Shown: positions 5,565 through 14,211 of the stretch, piece after piece
Numbering within the stretch: position 1 is the stretch's first letter
Layout: each line of letters starts with the position of its first letter
Assembly (NCBI RefSeq): GCF_026810225.1
Contig: NZ_CP113865.1
Location: 1,694,001-1,758,000, forward strand
Direction of reading: 5' to 3'
Source: Caldicellulosiruptor morganii
GTDB lineage: Bacteria > Bacillota > Thermoanaerobacteria > Caldicellulosiruptorales > Caldicellulosiruptoraceae
DNA length: 64,000 bases
Position numbers and translations under genes: made by a program
Notes under the pieces: generated by a model
The model's database searches: none
What the model saw: the letters and a program-made list of their open reading frames with translations, nothing else
What the model was told of the DNA's origin: nothing

Positions 5565-5584
5565 TTTAATTTGCAAAACAAAAA

Positions 5585-5618
5585 AGCTTTTGCGAAGGTT
5601 TTTGCCTTCACAAAAGCT
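5585..5618 (-). terminator. Terminator hairpin after P1 (array copy 1 of 7)
   Basis: AGCTTTTGCGAAGG / CCTTCACAAAAGCT hairpin followed by T6 on the minus strand. The same hairpin recurs after every paralog in the array and after tyrS. Confidence 0.8.
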
Positions 5619-5635
5619 CTAATTAAGCAGTGCTC

Positions 5636-6394
5636 TCAGTATTCTATACCAATCTTTTTAGCAAACTCTCTCAACATATTCTCTGTCTCTTTCCTCGACT
5701 TTTCCAGAATCTCTTCATAATCTTTCTTCCATATCTCAACATCCGCTCTGTCTATACCATTCCTCTTCGCATGTACCTTTCCCTCGTCTGTCTCAAAAAA
5801 CCACTTCTCCTTTATCCTCCAGTCATATCTCACATTAAAATACTTTGGTCTGTTGTCAAGTTCAAACTCTTTATACTTTTCCCAAACTTCTCGCCAGTTC
5901 TGTGGATTTTCTCTAAGCTCCCTCAGCAATTCCCTATACACCTTTATCGCTTCCATTGCAAGCTCTTCTCTTGCCTTGAAGTCAAGTATATACCATTTGC
6001 TATAATTCTCAGGATGCTCTGCTATGTCTTTGCTCTTCTCTTTGTAATACCCGGATTCATAATAATCAGCTAAAGCAGAGCATCCATTTCCAATAATGCC
6101 ATATAATTTCCTTATTCTCTTGTCAGTAAGTTTATCTATCGAATTACCAAATAAAGGAATAATATCATCTTCACTTTCAATCTGACTCTTCTGTGTCAAG
6201 CTCTGACTTTCATCTTTTTCGTAAACCACCTCATCCACTCTCTCTCCATTCTCGGATGCCAGTGCTATCTTCTGCACACCTTCAGATACTCCTCTTCCTG
6301 CTCCTGCACTCCCTCTGTTTAGCAAAATTCCTGCTCCTGTTAAACTTAATAAAAATATTCCTACCAGCACCATTATAACCACTCTTCTTTTCAT
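5636..6394 (-). CDS. Array paralog P1: unrecognised exported/membrane-anchored 252-residue protein
   Basis: I do not recognise this family. The N-terminus MKRR plus a hydrophobic stretch (about 5-25, no cysteine) is a signal peptide or signal anchor. A Gly/Ser/Glu-rich linker (about 28-75) follows, then a charged, mostly helical domain (about 85-252) with a conserved SKDIAEHPE motif, RELRENPQ.WREVWEKY and a C-terminal KKIGIEY. P1 carries block type A at residues 72-107 (EDDIIPLFGNSIDKL, containing one Cys at 105) and the KWFFET-type block near 197-213. It has its own likely promoter and a GAGAGGTG ribosome site. Last gene of the array. An immunity or inhibitor partner of the neighbouring amidase is possible but only a hypothesis. 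Confidence 0.8.
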   Translation of the reverse strand: MKRRVVIMVLVGIFLLSLTGAGILLNRGSAGAGRGVSEGVQKIALASENGERVDEVVYEKDESQSLTQKSQIESEDDIIPLFGNSIDKLTDKRIRKLYGIIGNGCSALADYYESGYYKEKSKDIAEHPENYSKWYILDFKAREELAMEAIKVYRELLRELRENPQNWREVWEKYKEFELDNRPKYFNVRYDWRIKEKWFFETDEGKVHAKRNGIDRADVEIWKKDYEEILEKSRKETENMLREFAKKIGIEY

Positions 6395-6416
6395 CTTCTC
6401 TCACACCTCTCTTCTC

Positions 6417-6453
6417 ATTATTTTGAACTTACCCTGTATAATATTACCCAGTT
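6417..6453 (-). repeat. Remnant of amidase 3' end in front of P1
   Basis: The minus strand reads in frame as NWVILYRVSSK and stop, identical to the last codons of both amidase genes, although no amidase gene is present here. Similar remnants precede P2, P4 and P5. Confidence 0.7.
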
Positions 6454-6466
6454 TGCAATTCTGCAA
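6438..6466 (-). promoter_or_regulatory. Likely P1 promoter
   Basis: TTGCAG (6461-6466), a 17-base spacer and TATTAT (6438-6443) on the minus strand. The -10 box lies inside the amidase-tail remnant. The same arrangement is present before P4 and P5 and, altered, before P2. Confidence 0.45.
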
Positions 6467-6668
6467 CTATTTCACTTTCAACTTTTTCCAATAAATTATT
6501 CCCCTGCCATTACATAAAGCTTCATCTGACAAACTTACATCTTACAAAATCTGCTTTATTTTATTATAACAGCTTCTCTGTAACATATCAATAAAAACTA
6601 ATTTCTCTTCAATCAATATTTTGATTTTTGTATATCTTAAATCAATCCAACAAAATCAAATACAAAAA

Positions 6669-6702
6669 AGCTTTTGTGAAGGTTTTTGCCCTCACAAAAG
6701 CT
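6669..6702 (-). terminator. Terminator hairpin after P2
   Basis: AGCTTTTGTGAAGG / CCCTCACAAAAGCT with one mismatch, followed by a T-run on the minus strand. Array copy 2. Confidence 0.75.
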
Positions 6703-6718
6703 CTCCTAAATATTACAC

Positions 6719-7477
6719 TCAGTATTCTATACCAATCTTTTTAGCAAACTCTCTCAACATATTCTCTGTCTCTCTCCTCGACTTTTCCAGAATCTTTTCA
6801 TAATCCCTCTTCCATATCTCAACATCCGCTCTGTCTAACTTTATTCCATTAGCCTCCATCTGCCTCTTCCCTTCCTCACTATTCAAAAACCACTCCTCCT
6901 TTATCCTCCAATCATAATCTACATTAAAATACTTCGGTCTAATGTCAAGTGTAAACTCTTTATACTTTTCCCAAACTTCTCGCCAGCTCTGTGGATTTTC
7001 TCTAAGCTCCCTCAGCAATTCCCTATACACCCTTATTGCTTCCATTGCAAGCTGCTCTTTTGCCTTGAATTCAAGTATATACAATTTGCTGTAATTCTCA
7101 GGATGTTCTGCTATATCTTTGCTCTTCTCTTTGTAATACCCGGATTCATAATAATCAGCTATGGGTCCTAAAGAAACTGAAATTATATCATAAATCTTCT
7201 TTACCCGCTCATCAGTAAACCTCTCTGTGGGGTCACCATATATAGCATCTTCCACACTTTCCCCCTGACTCTCCTGTGTCAAATTCTGACTTTCATCTTT
7301 TTCGTAAACCACCTCATCCACTCTCTCTCCATTCTCTGATGCCAGTGCTACTCTCTGCACACCTTCAGATACTCCTCTTCCTGCTCCTGCACTCACTCTC
7401 TTTACTAAAATTCCTGCACCCGTTAAACTTAATAAAAATATTCCTACCAGCACCATTATAACTGCTCTTCTTTTCAT
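6719..7477 (-). CDS. Array paralog P2: unrecognised exported/membrane-anchored 252-residue protein
   Basis: Same architecture as P1: basic start, hydrophobic segment 5-25, variable linker and helical C-terminal domain ending KKIGIEY. It differs in blocks. Residues 72-107 are type B (VEDAIYGDPTERFTDERV, no Cys), followed by SLGPIADYYES. The 175-190 block is the unique TLDIRPKYFNV form, and the 197-220 block is the WFLNSEEGKRQMEANG type with two extra residues. The N-terminal block KRVSAGAGRG/VQRV matches P3 and P6 and not P5, its positional partner in the duplication. Function unknown; a role connected with the adjacent secreted amidase is inferred only from linkage. Confidence 0.8.
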   Translation of the reverse strand: MKRRAVIMVLVGIFLLSLTGAGILVKRVSAGAGRGVSEGVQRVALASENGERVDEVVYEKDESQNLTQESQGESVEDAIYGDPTERFTDERVKKIYDIISVSLGPIADYYESGYYKEKSKDIAEHPENYSKLYILEFKAKEQLAMEAIRVYRELLRELRENPQSWREVWEKYKEFTLDIRPKYFNVDYDWRIKEEWFLNSEEGKRQMEANGIKLDRADVEIWKRDYEKILEKSRRETENMLREFAKKIGIEY

Positions 7478-7795
7478 CTTCTCTCACACCTCTCTTCTCA
7501 TTATTTTGAACTTACCCTGTATAAAATAATCCTTTTTGCAATTCTGCAGCTGCTTCACTTTTAACTTTTCCCAATAAATTATTCCCCTATCACTACATAA
7601 AGCTTCATCTGACAAACTTACATCTTACAAAACCTGCTTTATTTTATTATAACAGTTTTCTCTGTAACATATCAATAAAAACTAATTTCTCTTCAATCAA
7701 TATTTTGATTTTTGTATATCTTAAATCAATCCAACAAAATCAAAAGCTTTTGCGAAGGTTTTTCCCCTCACAAAAGCTCTAATTAAGCAGTGCTC
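7478..7795 (-). repeat. Array spacer repeat between P3 and P2 (copy 2 of 4)
   Basis: About 318 bases like 6395-6718. The amidase-tail remnant (7498-7530) is less well kept: the last codons YRVSSK-stop remain but the preceding NWVIL codons have diverged. No gene seen. Confidence 0.75.
7743..7778 (-). terminator. Terminator hairpin after P3
   Basis: Array copy 3 of the AGCTTTTG.GAAGG hairpin. The loop-side arm here is CCCCTCACAAAAGCT, so the top of the stem is weaker. Confidence 0.7.
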
Positions 7796-8554
7796 TTAGT
7801 ATTCTATACCAATCTTTTTAGCAAACTTTCTCAACATATTCTCTGTCTCTTTCCTCGACTTTTCCAGAATCTTTTCATAATCCTTCTTCCACTTCTCAAC
7901 ATCTGCTCTGTCTATACCATTCCTCTTCGCATGTACCTTCCCCTCTTCTGTCTCAAAAAACCACTTCTCCTTTATCCTCCAGTCATAATCTACATTAAAA
8001 TACTTTGGTCTGTTGTCAAGTTCAAACTCTTTATACTTTTCCCAAACTTCTCGCCAGTTCTGTGGATTTTCTCTAAGCTCTCTCATCAATTCCCTATACA
8101 CCCTTATTGCTTCCATTGCAAGCTGCTCTTCTGCCCTGAATTCAAGTATATACAATTTGCTGTAATTCTCAGGATGTTCTGCTATGTCTTTGCTCTTCTC
8201 TTTGTAATACCCGGATTCATAATAATCAGCTAAAGCAGAGCATCCATTTCCAATAATGCCATATAATTTCCTTATTCTCTTGTCAGTAAGTTTATCTATC
8301 GAATTACCAAACAAAGGAATAATATCATCTTCACTTTCAATCTGACTCTTCTGTGTCAAGCTCTGACTTTCATCTTTTTCGTAAACCACCTCATCCACTC
8401 TCTCTCCATTCTCTGATGCCAGTGCTACTCTCTGCACACCTTCAGATACTCCTCTTCCTGCTCCTGCACTCACTCTCTTTACTAAAATTCCTGCACCCGT
8501 TAAACTTAATAAAAATATTCCTACCAGCACCATTATAACTGCTCTTCTTTTCAT
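7796..8554 (-). CDS. Array paralog P3, directly downstream of amidase copy 1
   Basis: Unrecognised family, same layout as P1. Its start is 23 bases after the amidase stop, behind a GAGAGGTG ribosome site, so it is most likely translated from the amidase transcript. Blocks: N-terminal KRVSAGAGRG/VQRV type, type A at 72-107 as in P1 (including the single Cys), RPKYFNVDYDW at about 182-192 and KWFFETEEGKVHAKRNG at 197-213. It shares long stretches with P1 and not with P6, its positional partner in copy 2, which points to exchange between array members. Confidence 0.8.
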   Translation of the reverse strand: MKRRAVIMVLVGIFLLSLTGAGILVKRVSAGAGRGVSEGVQRVALASENGERVDEVVYEKDESQSLTQKSQIESEDDIIPLFGNSIDKLTDKRIRKLYGIIGNGCSALADYYESGYYKEKSKDIAEHPENYSKLYILEFRAEEQLAMEAIRVYRELMRELRENPQNWREVWEKYKEFELDNRPKYFNVDYDWRIKEKWFFETEEGKVHAKRNGIDRADVEKWKKDYEKILEKSRKETENMLRKFAKKIGIEY

Positions 8555-8577
8555 CTTCTCTCACACCTCTCTTCTCA

Positions 8578-9645
8578 TTATTTTGAACTTACCCTGTATA
8601 ATATTACCCAGTTTTTTGGAGTCGTCCTTTGCTGCAAATATTCAATAAAACTTCTACCATATACAAAATCGTCCGATGAAACAGAATGCTGTGCATATAA
8701 AAGGTCTGTTGATGTCTTGCTGACTATTACCTGTGAATGATAAGCTATGTTATCAGAATAACCTACATGCTGAACAATATCTCCCTCTTTTAAAAAGCCA
8801 AGCACTACACTGCTGAATCTCTCAATTGCATACCACACAGGATATATTCTAATTTGATATGCTCTGTTATACCCTGAACCATCAAAGTTACCCCAGTGCT
8901 GCCTGAAATAATTTGCACCCGTCCATGTTGTACTTCGGTTTGTTGATGTACGGTAAAACCAGTAGTTTGTATTACTTTCTATCCCAGAAGACGAAGAATA
9001 TATCATATTCATGTACCCTGCAAACAATACCTGTGAGGCAAAATTTGTACAATCTCCTCCATAGTTTGCAAAATTAGCAAATGTAATGCCCCTGCATGTG
9101 TAAGTATTTTGGTATGAATAGTTGCTTTTCGCATAATTTACAGCCGCCGCTCTATCATAACCTGAATTTGCATTAGCTGTATTAATTGATGATCTCATCA
9201 ACTGAAGATAATAATTATGTGAACCCGAATGCCCGTATGCACTTGATACCAAAACGTAATAATAACCATTGCTCGGAACTGTATACTGAATAAATTCGTT
9301 CTTACCGGTTGAATTGGTGGATGATGCTACCAAACTCTGTGAGGAATTATACAAATATAGGTTGTAATTTACAGCCTCGTGCGCATTGATAAGGCTTATC
9401 GAAACAATATCACCTGATTTCAAATATACCCTGAAATAATCTTTATCCTGCGAAGGGTTTGTTGTTTGATAAATCAAACCCTTTACAAAATCTCCACAAT
9501 TGATTGCATTTGCTGTTGAAAAACTGTTATTACTCTCCTGCTCTACTATCTCTCTTGCTTTTACAATCTCATTATAGCAAATTATCAATGTAAATGCTAC
9601 AAATAAAATCAAAAATTTTGGAAAATACCGCATAATCCTACTCAT
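8578..9645 (-). CDS. Secreted PPC-domain / Amidase_6-like protein, copy 1
   Basis: About 355 residues. A signal peptide (hydrophobic 10-25, cleavage plausible after IVKA) is followed by a bacterial pre-peptidase (PPC) beta-sandwich (about 38-150: ESNNSFSTANAI, DKDYFRVYLKSGDIVSI, FIQYTVPSNGYYYVLV). Next is an Amidase_6-type papain-fold domain (about 163-355) with GGDCTNFASQVLFAGY (nucleophile Cys near 199) and AYHSQVIV (His near 303). Amidase_6 proteins are predicted cell-wall or peptide amidases of Firmicutes; the substrate is unknown. An upstream in-frame GTG/TTG exists, but the ATG at 9645 is spaced best from AGGGG. P3 follows after 23 bases. Confidence 0.85.
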   Translation of the reverse strand: MSRIMRYFPKFLILFVAFTLIICYNEIVKAREIVEQESNNSFSTANAINCGDFVKGLIYQTTNPSQDKDYFRVYLKSGDIVSISLINAHEAVNYNLYLYNSSQSLVASSTNSTGKNEFIQYTVPSNGYYYVLVSSAYGHSGSHNYYLQLMRSSINTANANSGYDRAAAVNYAKSNYSYQNTYTCRGITFANFANYGGDCTNFASQVLFAGYMNMIYSSSSGIESNTNYWFYRTSTNRSTTWTGANYFRQHWGNFDGSGYNRAYQIRIYPVWYAIERFSSVVLGFLKEGDIVQHVGYSDNIAYHSQVIVSKTSTDLLYAQHSVSSDDFVYGRSFIEYLQQRTTPKNWVILYRVSSK

Positions 9646-9766
9646 CAACACACCCCTCTCACTCTTTGGTATTTTCAGTTTATAAAGTTATCTTTAAAAA
9701 CTTTTTCTTTTGCACAAATATACTTTTACAAATTAAACTCACCTCTTTAGTAAATAATTTACTTTT

Positions 9767-9799
9767 ATTATAGCACAACAACAACAACAACAACAACAA
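9767..9799 (-). promoter_or_regulatory. Amidase copy 1 promoter with (TTG)8 microsatellite in the -35/spacer region
   Basis: On the minus strand TATAAT (9767-9772) is preceded by TGC, an extended -10, and then by eight perfect TTG units (9776-9799). The repeat supplies both the -35 (TTGTTG, for example 9791-9796 with an 18-base spacer) and the spacer. It lies about 120 bases upstream of the amidase start. Confidence 0.65.
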
Positions 9800-9879
9800 T
9801 ATGTAAATTAACTAAAATTACTTTTTTAATTTGTAAAGCTTTAACAAAAACATAATGCAATTCTGTGAAAAAACAAAAA

Positions 9880-9914
9880 AGCTTTTGCGAAGGTTTTTGC
9901 CCTCACAAAAGCTC
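9880..9914 (-). terminator. Terminator hairpin after P4
   Basis: AGCTTTTGCGAAGG / CCTCACAAAAGCT with a T-run on the minus strand. Array copy 4. It separates copy 2 from the amidase copy 1 promoter. Confidence 0.75.
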
Positions 9915-9930
9915 TAATTAAGCAGTGCTC

Positions 9931-10689
9931 TCAGTATTCTATACCAATCTTTTTAGCAAATTCTCTCAACATATTCTCTGTCTCTTTCCTCGATTTTTCC
10001 AGAATCTCTTCATAATCCTTCTTCCACTTCTCAACATCTGCTCTGTCTAACTTTATTCCATTAGCCTCCATCTGCCTCTTCCCTTCCTCACTATTCAAAA
10101 ACCACTCCTCCTTTATCCTCCAGTCATATCTCACATTAAAATACTTTGGTCTGTTGTCAAGTTCAAACTCTTTATACTTTTCCCAAACTTCTCTCCAGCT
10201 CTGTGGATTTTCTCTAAGCTCCCTCATCAATTCCCTGTATACCTTTATCGCTTCCATTGCAAGCTGCTCTCTGCTCTTCCACTCAAGAATATACAATTCA
10301 TCATATTTTTCTGGATGTTCTGCTATGTCTTTAGAGGTTCTCTTCCAAGAATCAGAATAATAAAAGTCTGCTAATGCAGAACTTGAAACTAATATGATAT
10401 CATAAATCTTCTTTACTCGCTCATCAGTAAACTTCTCTGTAGGGTCACCATATATAGCATCTTCCACACTTTCACCCTGACTCTTCTGTGTCAAGCTCTG
10501 ACTTTCATCTTTTTCGTAAACCACCTCATCCACTCTCTCTCCATTCTCGGATGCCAGTGCTATCTTCTGCACACCTTCAGATACTCCTCTTCCTGCTCCT
10601 GCACTCCCTCTCTTTACTAAAATTCCTGCACCCGTTAAACTTAATAAAAATATTCCTACCAGCACCATTATAACTGCTCTTCTTTTCAT
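9931..10689 (-). CDS. Array paralog P4: unrecognised exported/membrane-anchored 252-residue protein
   Basis: Same layout as P1. Blocks: N-terminal KRGSAGAGRG/VQKI type, type B at 72-100, then the type C segment SSALADFYYSDSWKRTSKD with EKYDELYILEWKSREQ (shared only with P6). It also has ELDNRPKYFNVRYDW (shared with P1) and WFLNSEEGKRQMEANG (shared with P2 and P6). It is the positional partner of P1 in the 4.3-kb duplication, yet resembles P1 only in the first and third blocks. Own promoter and amidase-tail remnant upstream. Function unknown. Confidence 0.8.
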   Translation of the reverse strand: MKRRAVIMVLVGIFLLSLTGAGILVKRGSAGAGRGVSEGVQKIALASENGERVDEVVYEKDESQSLTQKSQGESVEDAIYGDPTEKFTDERVKKIYDIILVSSSALADFYYSDSWKRTSKDIAEHPEKYDELYILEWKSREQLAMEAIKVYRELMRELRENPQSWREVWEKYKEFELDNRPKYFNVRYDWRIKEEWFLNSEEGKRQMEANGIKLDRADVEKWKKDYEEILEKSRKETENMLREFAKKIGIEY

Positions 10690-11015
10690 CTTCTCTCACA
10701 CCTCTCTTCTCATTATTTTGAACTCACCCTGTATAATATTACCCAGTTTGCAATTCTGCAACTATTTCACTTCCAACTTTTTCCAATAAATTATTCCCCT
10801 GTCATTACATAAAGCTCCATCTGACAAACTTACATCTTACAAAATCTGCTTTATTTTATTATAACAGTTTTCTCTGTAACATATCAATAAAAACTAATTT
10901 CTCTTCAATCAATATTTTGATTTTTGTATATCTTAAATCAATCCAACAACATCAAATACAAAAAAGCTTTTGCGAAGGTTTTTGCCCTCACAAAAGCTCT
11001 AATTAAGCAGTGCTC
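10690..11015 (-). repeat. Array spacer repeat between P5 and P4 (copy 3 of 4)
   Basis: About 326 bases, nearly identical to 6395-6718 and 11769-12093. Contains the amidase-tail remnant at 10712-10748 and the P4 promoter. No gene seen. Confidence 0.8.
10966..11000 (-). terminator. Terminator hairpin after P5
   Basis: AGCTTTTGCGAAGG / CCTCACAAAAGCT with a T-run on the minus strand. Array copy 5. Confidence 0.75.
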
Positions 11016-11768
11016 TCAGTATTCTATACCAATCTTTTTAGCAAATTCTCTCAACATATTCTCGGTCTCTTTCCTCGACTTTTCTAGAATCTTTTCATAA
11101 TCCTTCTTCCATATCTCAACATCTGCTCTGTCTATACCATTCCTCTTCGCATGTACCTTCCCCTCTTCTGTCTCAAAAAACCACTTCTCTTTTATCCTCC
11201 AGTCATAATCTACATTCAATATCTTAGGTCTGAATTCAAGTTTAAAATTTTTATACTTTTCCCAAACTTCTCGCCAGCTCTGCGGATTTTCTCTAAGCTC
11301 CCTCAGCAATTCCCTATACACCCTTATTGCTTCCATTGCAAGCTCTTCTCTTGCCTTGAAGTCAAGTATATACCATTTGCTGTAATTCTCAGGATGTTCT
11401 GCTATGTCTTTGCTTTCTCTCTTATATAACTCAGATTCATAATAATCAGCTATGGGTCCTAAAGAAACTGAAATTATATCATAAATCTTCTTTACTCGCT
11501 CATCAGTAAACCTCTCTGTAGGGTCACAGTATATAGCATCTTCTACACTTTCACCCTGACTCTCCTGTGTCAAGCTCTGACTTTCATCTTTTTCGTAAAC
11601 CACCTCATCCACTCTCTCTCCATTCTCTGATGCCAGTGCTATCTTCTGCACACCTTCAGATACTCCTCTTCCTGCTCCTGCACTCCCTCTGCTTACCAAA
11701 ATTCCTGCTCCTGTTAAACTTAATAAAAATATTCCTACCAGCACTATTATAACTGCTCTTCTTTTCAT
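11016..11768 (-). CDS. Array paralog P5: unrecognised exported/membrane-anchored 250-residue protein
   Basis: Same layout as P1 but two residues shorter, because the 197-220 block is the WFFETEEGKVHAKRNG-IDRADVE form. Blocks: SRGSAGAGRG/VQKI N-terminus, type B at 72-107 with a Cys (DAIYCDPTERF) where the others have Gly, then SLGPIADYYESELYKRE as in P2. The middle block KLEFRPKILNVDYDW is shared with P6. A GGCGGGTGAGAG sequence replaces the usual GAGAGGTGTGAGAG ribosome region, so its translation strength may differ from the others. Function unknown. Confidence 0.8.
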   Translation of the reverse strand: MKRRAVIIVLVGIFLLSLTGAGILVSRGSAGAGRGVSEGVQKIALASENGERVDEVVYEKDESQSLTQESQGESVEDAIYCDPTERFTDERVKKIYDIISVSLGPIADYYESELYKRESKDIAEHPENYSKWYILDFKAREELAMEAIRVYRELLRELRENPQSWREVWEKYKNFKLEFRPKILNVDYDWRIKEKWFFETEEGKVHAKRNGIDRADVEIWKKDYEKILEKSRKETENMLREFAKKIGIEY

Positions 11769-12093
11769 CTTCTCTCACCCGCCTTTTCTCATTATTTTGA
11801 ACTCACCCTGTATAATATTACCCAGTTTGCAATTCTGCAACTATTTCACTTCCAACTTTTTCCAATAAATTATTCCCCTGTCATTACATAAAGCTCCATC
11901 TGACAAACTTACATCTTACAAAATCTGCTTTATTTTATTATAACAGTTTTCTCTGTAACATATCAATAAAAACTAATTTCTCTTCAATCAATATTTTGAT
12001 TTTTGTATATCTTAAATCAATCCAACAAAATCAAATACAAAAAAGCTTTTGTGAAGGTTTTTGCCTTCACAAAAGCTCTCCTAAATATTACAC
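11769..12093 (-). repeat. Array spacer repeat between P6 and P5 (copy 4 of 4)
   Basis: About 325 bases, almost identical to 10690-11015. Amidase-tail remnant at 11791-11827. No gene seen. Confidence 0.8.
12044..12079 (-). terminator. Terminator hairpin after P6
   Basis: AGCTTTTGTGAAGG / CCTTCACAAAAGCT, a perfect 14-base stem with a T-run on the minus strand. Array copy 6. Confidence 0.8.
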
Positions 12094-12852
12094 TCAGTAT
12101 TCTATACCAATCTTTTTAGCATACTTTCTCAACATATTCTCTGTCTCTTTCCTCGACTTTTCCAGAATCTTTTCATAATCCCTCTTCCATATCTCAACAT
12201 CTGCTCTGTCTAACTTTATTCCATTAGCCTCCATCTGCCTCTTCCCTTCCTCACTATTCAAAAACCACTTCTCTTTTATCCTCCAGTCATAATCTACATT
12301 CAATATCTTAGGTCTAAATTCAAGTTCAAAATTTTTATACTTTTCCCAAACTTCTCGCCAGTTCTGTGGATTTTCTCTAAGCTCTCTCATCAATTCTTCA
12401 TACACCTTTATCGCTTCCATTGCAAGCTGCTCTCTGCTCTTCCACTCAAGAATATACAATTCATCATATTTTTCTGGATGTTCTGCTATGTCTTTAGAGG
12501 TTCTCTTCCAAGAATCAGAATAATAAAAGTCTGCTAATGCAGAACTTGAAACTAATATAATATCATAAATCTTCTTTACTCGCTCATCAGTAAACCTCTC
12601 TGTGGGGTCACCATATATAGCATCTTCCACACTTTCCCCCTGACTCTCCTGTGTCAAATTCTGACTTTCACCTTTCCCATAAATCACTTCATCCACTCTC
12701 TCTCCATTCTCTGATGCCAGTGCTACTCTCTGCACACCTTCAGATACTCCTCTTCCTGCTCCTGCACTCACTCTCTTTACTAAAATTCCTGCACCCGTTA
12801 AACTTAATAAAAATATTCCTACCAGCACCATTATAACTGCTCTTCTTTTCAT
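12094..12852 (-). CDS. Array paralog P6, directly downstream of amidase copy 2
   Basis: Same layout as P1 and 23 bases after the amidase stop, as for P3. Blocks: KRVSAGAGRG/VQRV N-terminus (as P2 and P3), a diverged linker (EVIYGKGESQNLTQ), type B at 72-100 and the type C segment with DSWKRTSKD and EKYDELYILEW (as P4). ELEFRPKILNV is close to P5, and WFLNSEEGKRQMEANG matches P2 and P4. The C-terminus LRKYAKKIGIEY is slightly different. Function unknown; the amidase linkage suggests partner proteins. Confidence 0.8.
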   Translation of the reverse strand: MKRRAVIMVLVGIFLLSLTGAGILVKRVSAGAGRGVSEGVQRVALASENGERVDEVIYGKGESQNLTQESQGESVEDAIYGDPTERFTDERVKKIYDIILVSSSALADFYYSDSWKRTSKDIAEHPEKYDELYILEWKSREQLAMEAIKVYEELMRELRENPQNWREVWEKYKNFELEFRPKILNVDYDWRIKEKWFLNSEEGKRQMEANGIKLDRADVEIWKRDYEKILEKSRKETENMLRKYAKKIGIEY

Positions 12853-12875
12853 CTTCTCTCACACCTCTCTTCTCA

Positions 12876-13943
12876 TTATTTTGAACTTACCCTGTATAAT
12901 ATTACCCAGTTTTTTGGAGTCGTCTTCTTCTGCAAATATTCAATAAAACTTCTACCATATTCAAAATATTCCGGTAATACAGAATGCTGTGCATATAAAA
13001 GGTCTGTTGATGTCTTGCTGACTATTACCTGTGAATGATAAGCTTCGCAGTTATCATACCGTACATGCTGAACAATATCCCCCTCTTTTAAAAACCCCAG
13101 CACTACACTGCTGAATCTCTCAATTGCATACCACACAGGATATATTCTCACCTGATATGCTCTGTTATACCCTGAACCATCAAAGTTACCCCAGTGCTGC
13201 CTGAAATAATTTGCACCCGTCCATGTTGTACTTCGGTTTGTTGGTGTCCGGTAAAACCAGTAGTTTGTATTACTTTCTATCCCAGAAGCCGAAGAATATA
13301 TCATATTCATGTACCCTGCAAACAATACCTGTGAGGCAAAATTTGTACAATCCCCTCCATCGTTTGCAAAATTAGCAAATGTGATGCCCCTGCATGTGTA
13401 CTTATCTTTGTATGAATAGTTGCTTTTCGCATAATTTACAGCCGCCGCTCTATCATAACCTGAATTTGCATTAGCTGTATTAATTGATGATCTCATCAAC
13501 TGAAGATAATAATAATGTGAACCCGAATGCCCGTATGCACTTGATACCAAAACGTAATAATAACCATTGCTCGGAACTGTGTATTGAATAAATTCGTTCT
13601 TACCGGTTGAATTGGTGGATGATGCTACCAAACTCTGTGAGGAATTATACAAATATAGGTTGTAATTTACAGCCTCGTGCGCATTTATAAGGCTTATTGA
13701 AACAATATCGCCTGATTTCAAATATACCTTGAAATAATCTTTATCCTGCGAAGGGTTTGTTGTTTGATAAATCAAACCCTTTACAAAATCTCCACAATTG
13801 ATTGCATTTGCTGTTGAAAAACTGTTATTACTCTCCTGCTCTACTATCTCTCTTGCTTTTACAATCTCATTATAGCAAATTATCAATGTAAATGCTACAA
13901 ATAAAACCAAAAGTTTTGGAAAATACCGCATAATCCTACTCAT
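12876..13943 (-). CDS. Secreted PPC-domain / Amidase_6-like protein, copy 2
   Basis: Nearly identical to the protein at 8578-9645 with the same signal peptide, PPC domain and catalytic GGDCTNFAS and YHSQVIV motifs. Differences cluster in the catalytic domain, around the region before the active His (QHVRYDNCEAYHSQ versus QHVGYSDNIAYHSQ) and just after QHSV (LPEYFEYG versus SSDDFVYG). Surface or specificity loops may therefore be diversifying while the core is kept. Same ATG choice as copy 1. P6 follows after 23 bases. Confidence 0.85.
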   Translation of the reverse strand: MSRIMRYFPKLLVLFVAFTLIICYNEIVKAREIVEQESNNSFSTANAINCGDFVKGLIYQTTNPSQDKDYFKVYLKSGDIVSISLINAHEAVNYNLYLYNSSQSLVASSTNSTGKNEFIQYTVPSNGYYYVLVSSAYGHSGSHYYYLQLMRSSINTANANSGYDRAAAVNYAKSNYSYKDKYTCRGITFANFANDGGDCTNFASQVLFAGYMNMIYSSASGIESNTNYWFYRTPTNRSTTWTGANYFRQHWGNFDGSGYNRAYQVRIYPVWYAIERFSSVVLGFLKEGDIVQHVRYDNCEAYHSQVIVSKTSTDLLYAQHSVLPEYFEYGRSFIEYLQKKTTPKNWVILYRVSSK

Positions 13944-14064
13944 CAACACACCCCTCTCACTCTTTGGTATTTTCAGTTCATAAAGTTATCTTTAAAAACT
14001 TTTTCTTTTGCACAAATATACTTTTACAAATTAAACTCACCTCTTTAGTAAATAATTTACTTTT

Positions 14065-14097
14065 ATTATAGCACAACAACAACAACAACAACAACAA
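14065..14097 (-). promoter_or_regulatory. Amidase copy 2 promoter with (TTG)8 microsatellite
   Basis: Same arrangement as at 9767-9799: TGC-TATAAT (-10 at 14065-14070) preceded by eight TTG units (14074-14097 on the minus strand). Confidence 0.65.
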
Positions 14098-14177
14098 TAT
14101 GTAAATTAACTAAAATTACTTTTTTAATTTGTAAAGCTTTAACAAAAACATAATGCAATTCTGTGAAAAAACAAAAA

Positions 14178-14211
14178 AGCTTTTGTGAAGGTTTTTGCCC
14201 TCACAAAAGCT
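14178..14211 (-). terminator. tyrS terminator, array hairpin copy 7
   Basis: AGCTTTTGTGAAGG / CCCTCACAAAAGCT with a T-run on the minus strand. The last tyrS codons (AAG CTT TTG TGA) form part of the 5' arm of the stem. Confidence 0.8.

What the first reader, a model, noticed from the sequence alone, without database searches (positions are those of the whole stretch)
5583..14211. Tandem array: two secreted amidases and six diversified partner proteins
Seen: an approximately 4.3-kb unit (PPC-Amidase_6 gene followed by three copies of an unrecognised 250-252-residue exported protein) is present twice head to tail between tyrS and the MMPL gene. Known: Amidase_6 proteins are predicted secreted peptide or cell-wall amidases. 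Inference: a secreted enzyme linked to many variable copies of one small exported protein resembles effector/immunity or enzyme/inhibitor arrays. It could equally be a cell-surface remodelling set.
Basis: partly seen in the sequence, partly recalled or inferred. Interest (0 to 1): 0.82.

Follow-up and report, generated by a model that had tools for sequence, protein, structure and literature searches.

The report
Secreted amidases with tandem protector-like proteins
A probably heat-loving bacterium carries two genes for a secreted enzyme of a family thought to cut bacterial cell walls, each followed by three reshuffled copies of a small surface-anchored protein that most likely shields the cell from such enzymes, which would be a little-described way for single-membrane bacteria to fight and resist their kin.

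Summary
Six 250-252-residue exported proteins (P1-P6) and two PPC-Amidase_6 enzymes form two 4.3-kb head-to-tail units between tyrS and MMPL. The partner family has no Pfam, NCBIfam or PDB relative. Its predicted all-helical domain matches no solved fold, and it was found only in this genus. The six copies are strong mosaics (PHI test p about 0.0005). The array reads as six transcription units: amidase+P6 | P5 | P4 | amidase+P3 | P2 | P1. Each stand-alone P copy has its own promoter-like site and terminator and keeps a 60-nt fossil of the amidase-P junction. The pattern is wider: in the genus 18 of 23 Amidase_6 genes are followed by a TM- or lipobox-anchored exported protein, against 9 of 239 other genes. 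The partners fall into several apparently unrelated families. When pairs decay, the amidase goes and the partner stays (11 cases against at most 1). This fits effector/immunity (enzyme/inhibitor) better than a foldase or a fixed wall-remodelling pair. The nearest relative lacks the array; elsewhere in the genus, cargo at this site is flanked by a degenerate copy of the tyrS 3' end and terminator, suggesting a cassette hotspot. Inhibition, toxicity and target are inferred, not shown.

The parts
12876..13949 (-). Amidase A: secreted PPC + Amidase_6 enzyme (357 aa), signal peptide, Cys201 and His305 kept
   Evidence: (its 94% identical copy B scores Amidase_6 1.8e-22)
12094..12852 (-). P6: exported/anchored partner, 23 nt downstream of amidase A (same operon)
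11016..11768 (-). P5: stand-alone partner copy (250 aa)
9931..10689 (-). P4: stand-alone partner copy
8578..9651 (-). Amidase B: second PPC + Amidase_6 enzyme, 94% identical to A; differences concentrated at residues 181-183, 197, 297-302, 325-330, 341-342
7796..8554 (-). P3: partner, 23 nt downstream of amidase B
6719..7477 (-). P2: stand-alone partner copy
5636..6394 (-). P1: stand-alone partner copy
11937..11966 (-). Promoter-like site of P5 (TTGATA-N18-TATAAT, extended -10)
   Evidence: 11 of 12 matches; consensus match only
10858..10887 (-). Promoter-like site of P4
7646..7675 (-). Promoter-like site of P2
6563..6591 (-). Promoter-like site of P1
11769..11828 (-). 60-nt fossil of the amidase-P junction (amidase 3' end plus 23-nt spacer) upstream of P5; same at 10690-10749 (P4), 7478-7537 (P2), 6395-6454 (P1)
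   Evidence: 91.7-100% identity
14176..14213 (-). Terminator of tyrS; the same stem-loop follows every P copy (12038-12083, 10963-11000, 9878-9915, 7743-7780, 6663-6708, 5583-5620)
   Evidence: (family D7)
14073..14111 (-). (TTG)n microsatellite lying across the -35/spacer region of the presumed amidase A promoter (same at 9775-9813 for B)

Best explanation
This is an expanded effector/immunity locus. The secreted Amidase_6 enzyme is released by the Sec route and is predicted to cut peptidoglycan (or another surface peptide) of neighbouring cells. The partner has an N-terminal membrane-spanning segment, a flexible linker of about 50 residues and a compact helical domain; it stays on the outer face of the producer's membrane and neutralises the amidase, probably by binding at its active-site face. 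The first partner of each unit is co-transcribed with its amidase. Extra copies came from duplication of the junction region, gained their own promoter, and were reshuffled by gene conversion, so the cell may display six related inhibitors, matching its own two amidase alleles and perhaps those of competitors. Shown: anatomy, exported N-termini by hydropathy, intact catalytic residues, mosaicism, pairing across loci, one-sided decay, insertion hotspot. Inferred: secretion route, peptidoglycan as target, inhibition, protection, and the benefit of many copies.
For: Pairing: 18 of 23 genus amidases are followed by an anchored exported gene against 9 of 239 other genes (p=4.5e-17); high-scoring (presumed housekeeping-type) Amidase_6 of other genera show no such excess, 2 of 40; divergent Amidase_6 of other genera do, 13 of 21 against 7 of 50. 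Partner families A, B, C and D share no detectable homology beyond the N-terminal hydrophobic segment; B and DUF4829-type partners look NTF2-like, a fold recorded among immunity proteins (PMC3482391). One-sided decay: intact partner with dead or absent amidase in 11 cases: family A at L033, L037, L040, L042; family B at L204, L205, L206, L207, L208, L140; family D at L212; reverse at most 1 (L213). Extra P copies have promoters and terminators and a junction fossil. Mosaicism p about 0.0005. Amidase A/B differences pile up in one 50-residue window around the catalytic His, 12 of 23, permutation p 0.0005. Catalytic Cys201 and His305 invariant in five family members.
Against: No direct evidence of binding, inhibition or toxicity. 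No clear positive selection: dN/dS is below 1 between partner copies and about 1 only in the amidase 296-342 segment; the N:S contrast there is p=0.06. A nearest-neighbour clustering test of the amidase differences was not significant (p=0.47). Decay cases are not independent; collapsed by locus they are 5 against 0 plus one mixed (p=0.06). Orphan partners also fit a partner with its own separate function. Whether the window copies are TM-anchored or cleaved after export is uncertain.
Confidence: 0.6

Rival explanations
1. A self-directed cell-wall remodelling set: the amidase trims the producer's own wall or surface proteins, and the anchored partner localises or restrains it as part of normal growth.
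For: Amidase_6 in Bacillus subtilis (yhbB, yjcM) is listed among cell-wall hydrolases (PMC10653849). Enzyme and partner are both on the surface. The neighbouring MMPL gene is an envelope transporter family.
Against: The array is absent from the nearest relative (112 bp between tyrS and MMPL), so it is not a core growth function. Partner families are interchangeable and sequence-unrelated. The high-scoring Amidase_6 group lacks such partners. Copies vary and reassort.
Confidence: 0.18
2. The partner is a membrane-anchored foldase or export chaperone for the amidase, as LipH/Lif is for Pseudomonas lipase (TM helix, linker, helical domain, gene directly downstream of its client).
For: Same gene order and the same overall plan: N-terminal TM, disordered stretch to about residue 81, helical domain 82-252.
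Against: Intact orphan partners persist where the amidase is lost; a foldase without a client should be lost. Six partners for two clients, reshuffled, is excessive. Partner families are mutually unrelated for one enzyme fold. High-scoring Amidase_6 manages without one. No foldase structure was matched.
Confidence: 0.12
3. The partner copies are substrates, decoys or adhesins of unrelated function, carried along by tandem duplication at a recombination hotspot.
For: The site collects other cargo (266-aa + 119-aa pair). Repeated terminators favour unequal crossing-over and neutral copy-number growth.
Against: The amidase-partner linkage is kept at two separate genomic loci for family A and many for other families. 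All six P copies and both amidases are intact.
Confidence: 0.1

Closest known systems
Immunity-gene arrays of Vibrio cholerae type VI clusters (PMC5361080)
   Same: Effector followed by several immunity genes; orphan immunity genes; effector 3' ends left in front of displaced immunity genes; mosaic by recombination
   Different: Here the copies are one family made by tandem duplication and conversion, the effector is Sec-type secreted rather than injected, and the partners are surface-anchored in a presumably single-membrane bacterium
Homogeneous polyimmunity loci (PMC3482391)
   Same: Tandem paralogues of one immunity-like family thought to cover non-self toxin variants
   Different: That paper states immunity genes there are never interrupted by toxin genes; here an amidase gene separates the two P triplets
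Secreted papain-like proteases with adjacent inhibitor genes (staphopain/staphostatin, SpeB/Spi, Bacteroides Bfp/Bfi; PMC2873492)
   Same: Papain-like secreted enzyme followed by a co-transcribed inhibitor; the Bacteroides inhibitors are exported or lipoproteins
   Different: Staphostatins are lipocalin-like and Spi is a propeptide analogue; this partner is all-helical and occurs in tandem mosaic copies
Tae3-type amidase effectors, which PMC10318531 groups with Amidase_6
   Same: Papain-like amidase domain with catalytic Cys/His, predicted peptidoglycan target
   Different: Tae effectors are injected by type VI machinery; this enzyme has its own signal peptide and a PPC domain
Lipase-specific foldase (LipH/Lif)
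   Same: N-terminal TM, linker, helical domain; gene directly downstream of a secreted enzyme
   Different: Multiple copies, orphan retention, no detectable similarity

Membership tests
Amidase_6 (PF12671) | Profile match above gathering score | tested here: met
   80.7 bits against cut-off 23.2
Amidase_6 (PF12671) | Catalytic Cys and His present | tested here: met
   DCTNFAS with C201 and YHSQ with H305 invariant in five members; catalytic role assigned from the family, not assayed
Amidase_6 (PF12671) | Peptidoglycan amidase activity | not testable with these tools
   needs an assay
Effector/immunity pair | Immunity gene directly adjacent to and co-directional with the effector gene | tested here: met
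Effector/immunity pair | Orphan immunity genes outlast effectors | tested here: met
   11 against at most 1 (non-independent; by locus 5 against 0 plus one mixed)
Effector/immunity pair | Partner neutralises the effector | not testable with these tools
   no binding or activity data; complex not modelled
Homogeneous polyimmunity locus | Tandem paralogues of one immunity family | tested here: met
Homogeneous polyimmunity locus | Not interrupted by toxin genes | tested here: not met
   amidase B lies between P4 and P3; definition read
Staphostatin/Spi-type inhibitor | Sequence or fold similarity to those inhibitors | tested here: not met
   no sequence match; predicted all-alpha model
Lipase-specific foldase | Sequence or fold similarity to Lif | tested here: not met
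   no match among Pfam, PDB sequences or PDB folds at E<=0.001
Polymorphic toxin system | Conserved N-terminal trafficking part with exchangeable C-terminal toxin domain | tested here: inconclusive
   N-half of the amidase conserved and C-half more divergent, but the catalytic domain is the same fold in A and B

The most novel reading that the evidence does not exclude
A widespread, apparently undescribed class of antagonism in Firmicutes: fast-evolving Sec-secreted Amidase_6 enzymes, each with a cognate surface-anchored inhibitor from one of several unrelated families, spread as terminator-delimited cassettes at core-gene 3' ends, with the window showing an extreme form in which the inhibitor repertoire is multiplied and shuffled to change specificity.
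Probability: 0.4. Interest if true: 0.8.

Novelty: new variant of a known kind. Interest (0 to 1): 0.62.

Why it matters
Immunity to extracellular wall-cutting enzymes in single-membrane bacteria is best known through wall modification (general knowledge, not tested here). A family of anchored protein inhibitors of unrelated folds, kept after enzyme loss and multiplied by recombination, would open a new set of bacterial enzyme/inhibitor pairs, possibly heat-stable, and a testable model of how inhibitor repertoires diversify. The genus-wide rule (divergent secreted Amidase_6 gene followed by an anchored partner) gives an easy way to find more.

Tried and rejected
Genome-wide look-ups by peptide patterns for relatives of the partner found none outside the genus; profile search of the class gave only three non-genus matches, all weak (E 0.001-0.009), judged chance. 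Structure of the amidase could not be modelled from two sequences (pLDDT 40), so variable residues were not mapped in 3D. The PDB fold search of the partner gave nothing at E<=0.001 (best 0.69). A complex could not be modelled. The 42 apparent family-B hits in G011 are judged an artefact: the C-terminal half of the L125 partner is read from an inserted mobile element; L125 was removed before the decay count. No Rfam family in the array. No PADLOC hit; the amidase matches a PHROG peptidase family; no plasmid match. Strong positive selection was looked for and not found. A nearest-neighbour clustering test of amidase differences was not significant (p=0.47), while a scan statistic was.
Full report
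OBSERVATION. The minus strand of 5583-14211 reads tyrS | amidase A - P6 - P5 - P4 - amidase B - P3 - P2 - P1 | MMPL. Direct repeats show a 4298-bp unit and roughly 1080-bp sub-units. Amidase B carries PPC and Amidase_6 domains over Pfam's cut-offs, and the genome-wide Amidase_6 search finds both A and B. The P family matches no Pfam or NCBIfam model at its cut-off and no PDB sequence even as a profile. All six genomic copies are in this array. A third, shorter Amidase_6 lies elsewhere in the genome.

ANATOMY. P proteins have a KRR n-region, a hydrophobic stretch (residues about 5-24), a stretch predicted disordered to about residue 81 and a confident all-helical domain at 82-252 (model from the six window copies, mean pLDDT 69, about 90 over the domain). 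No solved fold matches at E<=0.001. Two family members elsewhere carry FAGC or LTGC at the equivalent place, and the partners of families D and E have lipobox-like sequences, so surface retention looks common; whether the window copies are TM-anchored or cleaved is open. The amidase keeps DCTNFAS (Cys201) and YHSQ (His305), invariant in five members.

TRANSCRIPTION. Terminator-like stem-loops follow tyrS and every P copy. The four P copies not next to an amidase each have a TTGATA-N17/18-TATAAT site 11/12 to consensus (terminators 10 found against 2.3 expected; promoter-like sites overall were not above the shuffled expectation, so these four rest on their match quality and repetition). This suggests six units: A-P6, P5, P4, B-P3, P2, P1. 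The amidases have TGCTATAAT preceded by a (TTG)n run. Each stand-alone P copy is preceded by 60 nt that equal the amidase 3' end plus the 23-nt spacer (91.7-100%). So the extra copies descend from an amidase-P operon.

MOSAICISM. Among 135 informative biallelic sites of the six P genes the pairwise homoplasy index is 0.186 against 0.397 (sd 0.011) for permuted order, p about 0.0005. Blocks group the copies differently along the gene: P1+P3 at codons 72-104, P4+P6 at 109-141, P5+P6 at 176-186, then strict alternation P2+P4+P6 against P1+P3+P5 at 200-213. Synonymous divergence is 0.10 in codons 1-70 but 0.67 and 0.63 in 71-112 and 113-150: shared ends were homogenised, internal blocks stay old. 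dN is below dS, so this is reassortment of old variants more than recent positive selection. Amidases A and B are nearly identical upstream (230 of 231 bp) and in the N-terminal half (dN 0.011), but residues 296-342 around His305 have dN 0.148 and dS 0.152. Twelve of 23 amino-acid differences fall in one 50-residue window (permutation p 0.0005), although a nearest-neighbour test was not significant (p 0.47). G004's amidase shares A's residues at that loop, RYDNCEAYHS.

DISTRIBUTION. The P family was found only in this genus (three weak matches elsewhere in the class, E 0.001-0.009, are judged chance). Single orthologues follow an amidase in G004, G005 and G002, and at a second locus in G011. 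The nearest relative sampled, G001 (tyrS 98.7%, MMPL 96.7%), has just 112 bp and one terminator between tyrS and MMPL.

A GENERAL RULE. Across the genus 18 of 23 detected Amidase_6 genes are followed within 200 bp by a 130-420-aa protein with a single N-terminal hydrophobic segment, against 9 of 239 other genes (p=4.5e-17). Three of the five exceptions (L122, L123, L125) have a broken or interrupted partner or pair; the other two (L132, L136) have a lipobox-bearing partner just under the hydropathy threshold. High-scoring Amidase_6 genes of other genera show no excess (2 of 40), while lower-scoring, divergent ones do (13 of 21 against 7 of 50, p=1e-4; I chose that set by low score). Partners fall into several groups, and profile comparisons of family A with B, D and C find nothing beyond the hydrophobic N-terminus. 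Several partners look NTF2-like or match DUF4829.

DECAY. An intact partner with a missing, truncated, split or fragmentary amidase occurs in 11 cases: L033, L037, L040, L042 (family A), L140, L204-L208 (family B) and L212 (family D). The reverse occurs at most once (L213, partner interrupted by an insertion, amidase open but with a weak signal sequence). Cases at orthologous loci are not independent; by locus they are 5 to 0 with one mixed (p=0.06). In family B the partner is the longer gene (about 235 against 200 codons), so target size does not explain the bias. Orphan immunity genes are known from type VI systems (PMC12247911 and PMC5361080, found; PMC5361080 read).

HOTSPOT. In seven other genomes cargo sits between tyrS and MMPL. 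In six of these examined, the cargo is followed, 74-96 bp before MMPL, by a degenerate copy of the tyrS 3' end plus terminator (60-111 nt, 78-86% identical); G005, the seventh, was not examined in that script. In the window only the terminator part is repeated after each P copy. I infer cassettes that arrive by recombination at the tyrS 3' end and multiply by crossing-over between terminator repeats; no recombinase was looked for. A second cassette type (266-aa exported plus 119-aa protein) uses the same site.

INTERPRETATION. The weight favours a secreted amidase effector with surface-held immunity proteins, multiplied and shuffled here. A foldase explains the gene order and domain plan but not orphans, partner replacement or copy number. 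Self wall remodelling is weakened by absence in the nearest relative and interchangeable partners. Published precedents for separate parts exist, but the few literature searches made found no paper describing this pairing or array. The genus is likely Caldicellulosiruptor and the host thermophilic by recall of gene content; this was not tested.

Noticed in passing
L034 10394-11597, L036 9850-11020, L038 5823-7026, L201 5558-6761 and 7174-8436: A second cassette at the tyrS-MMPL site: a 266-271-aa exported protein with a 119-130-aa downstream protein, no Pfam match. In L201 the two copies are identical over the N-terminal part and differ in the C-terminal 70 or so residues, like a polymorphic toxin.
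   Followed up: partly
L033, L034, L036, L037, L038, L201 just before MMPL: Degenerate copies of the tyrS 3' end plus terminator (60-111 nt) flank the cargo in each of these genomes, suggesting a cassette insertion site at the end of tyrS.
   Followed up: partly
window 14073-14111 and 9775-9813: (TTG)n microsatellite directly upstream of the presumed amidase -10 element; a possible slippage-tuned promoter.
   Followed up: no
L211 2465-3070 (G000:C1:2073494): Orphan family-B partner with an internal deletion in the window's own genome, beside AbrB-like and PIN-like genes (named from memory); no amidase nearby.
   Followed up: partly
L125/L213 (G011:C1:2051-2055k): Family-B partner split by an insertion element whose reverse strand reads open and gives dozens of false profile matches in G011.
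   Followed up: yes
L154, L158: DUF4829 (PF16111) proteins sit directly downstream of divergent Amidase_6 genes in other Firmicutes; no paper in the held library mentions DUF4829.
   Followed up: partly
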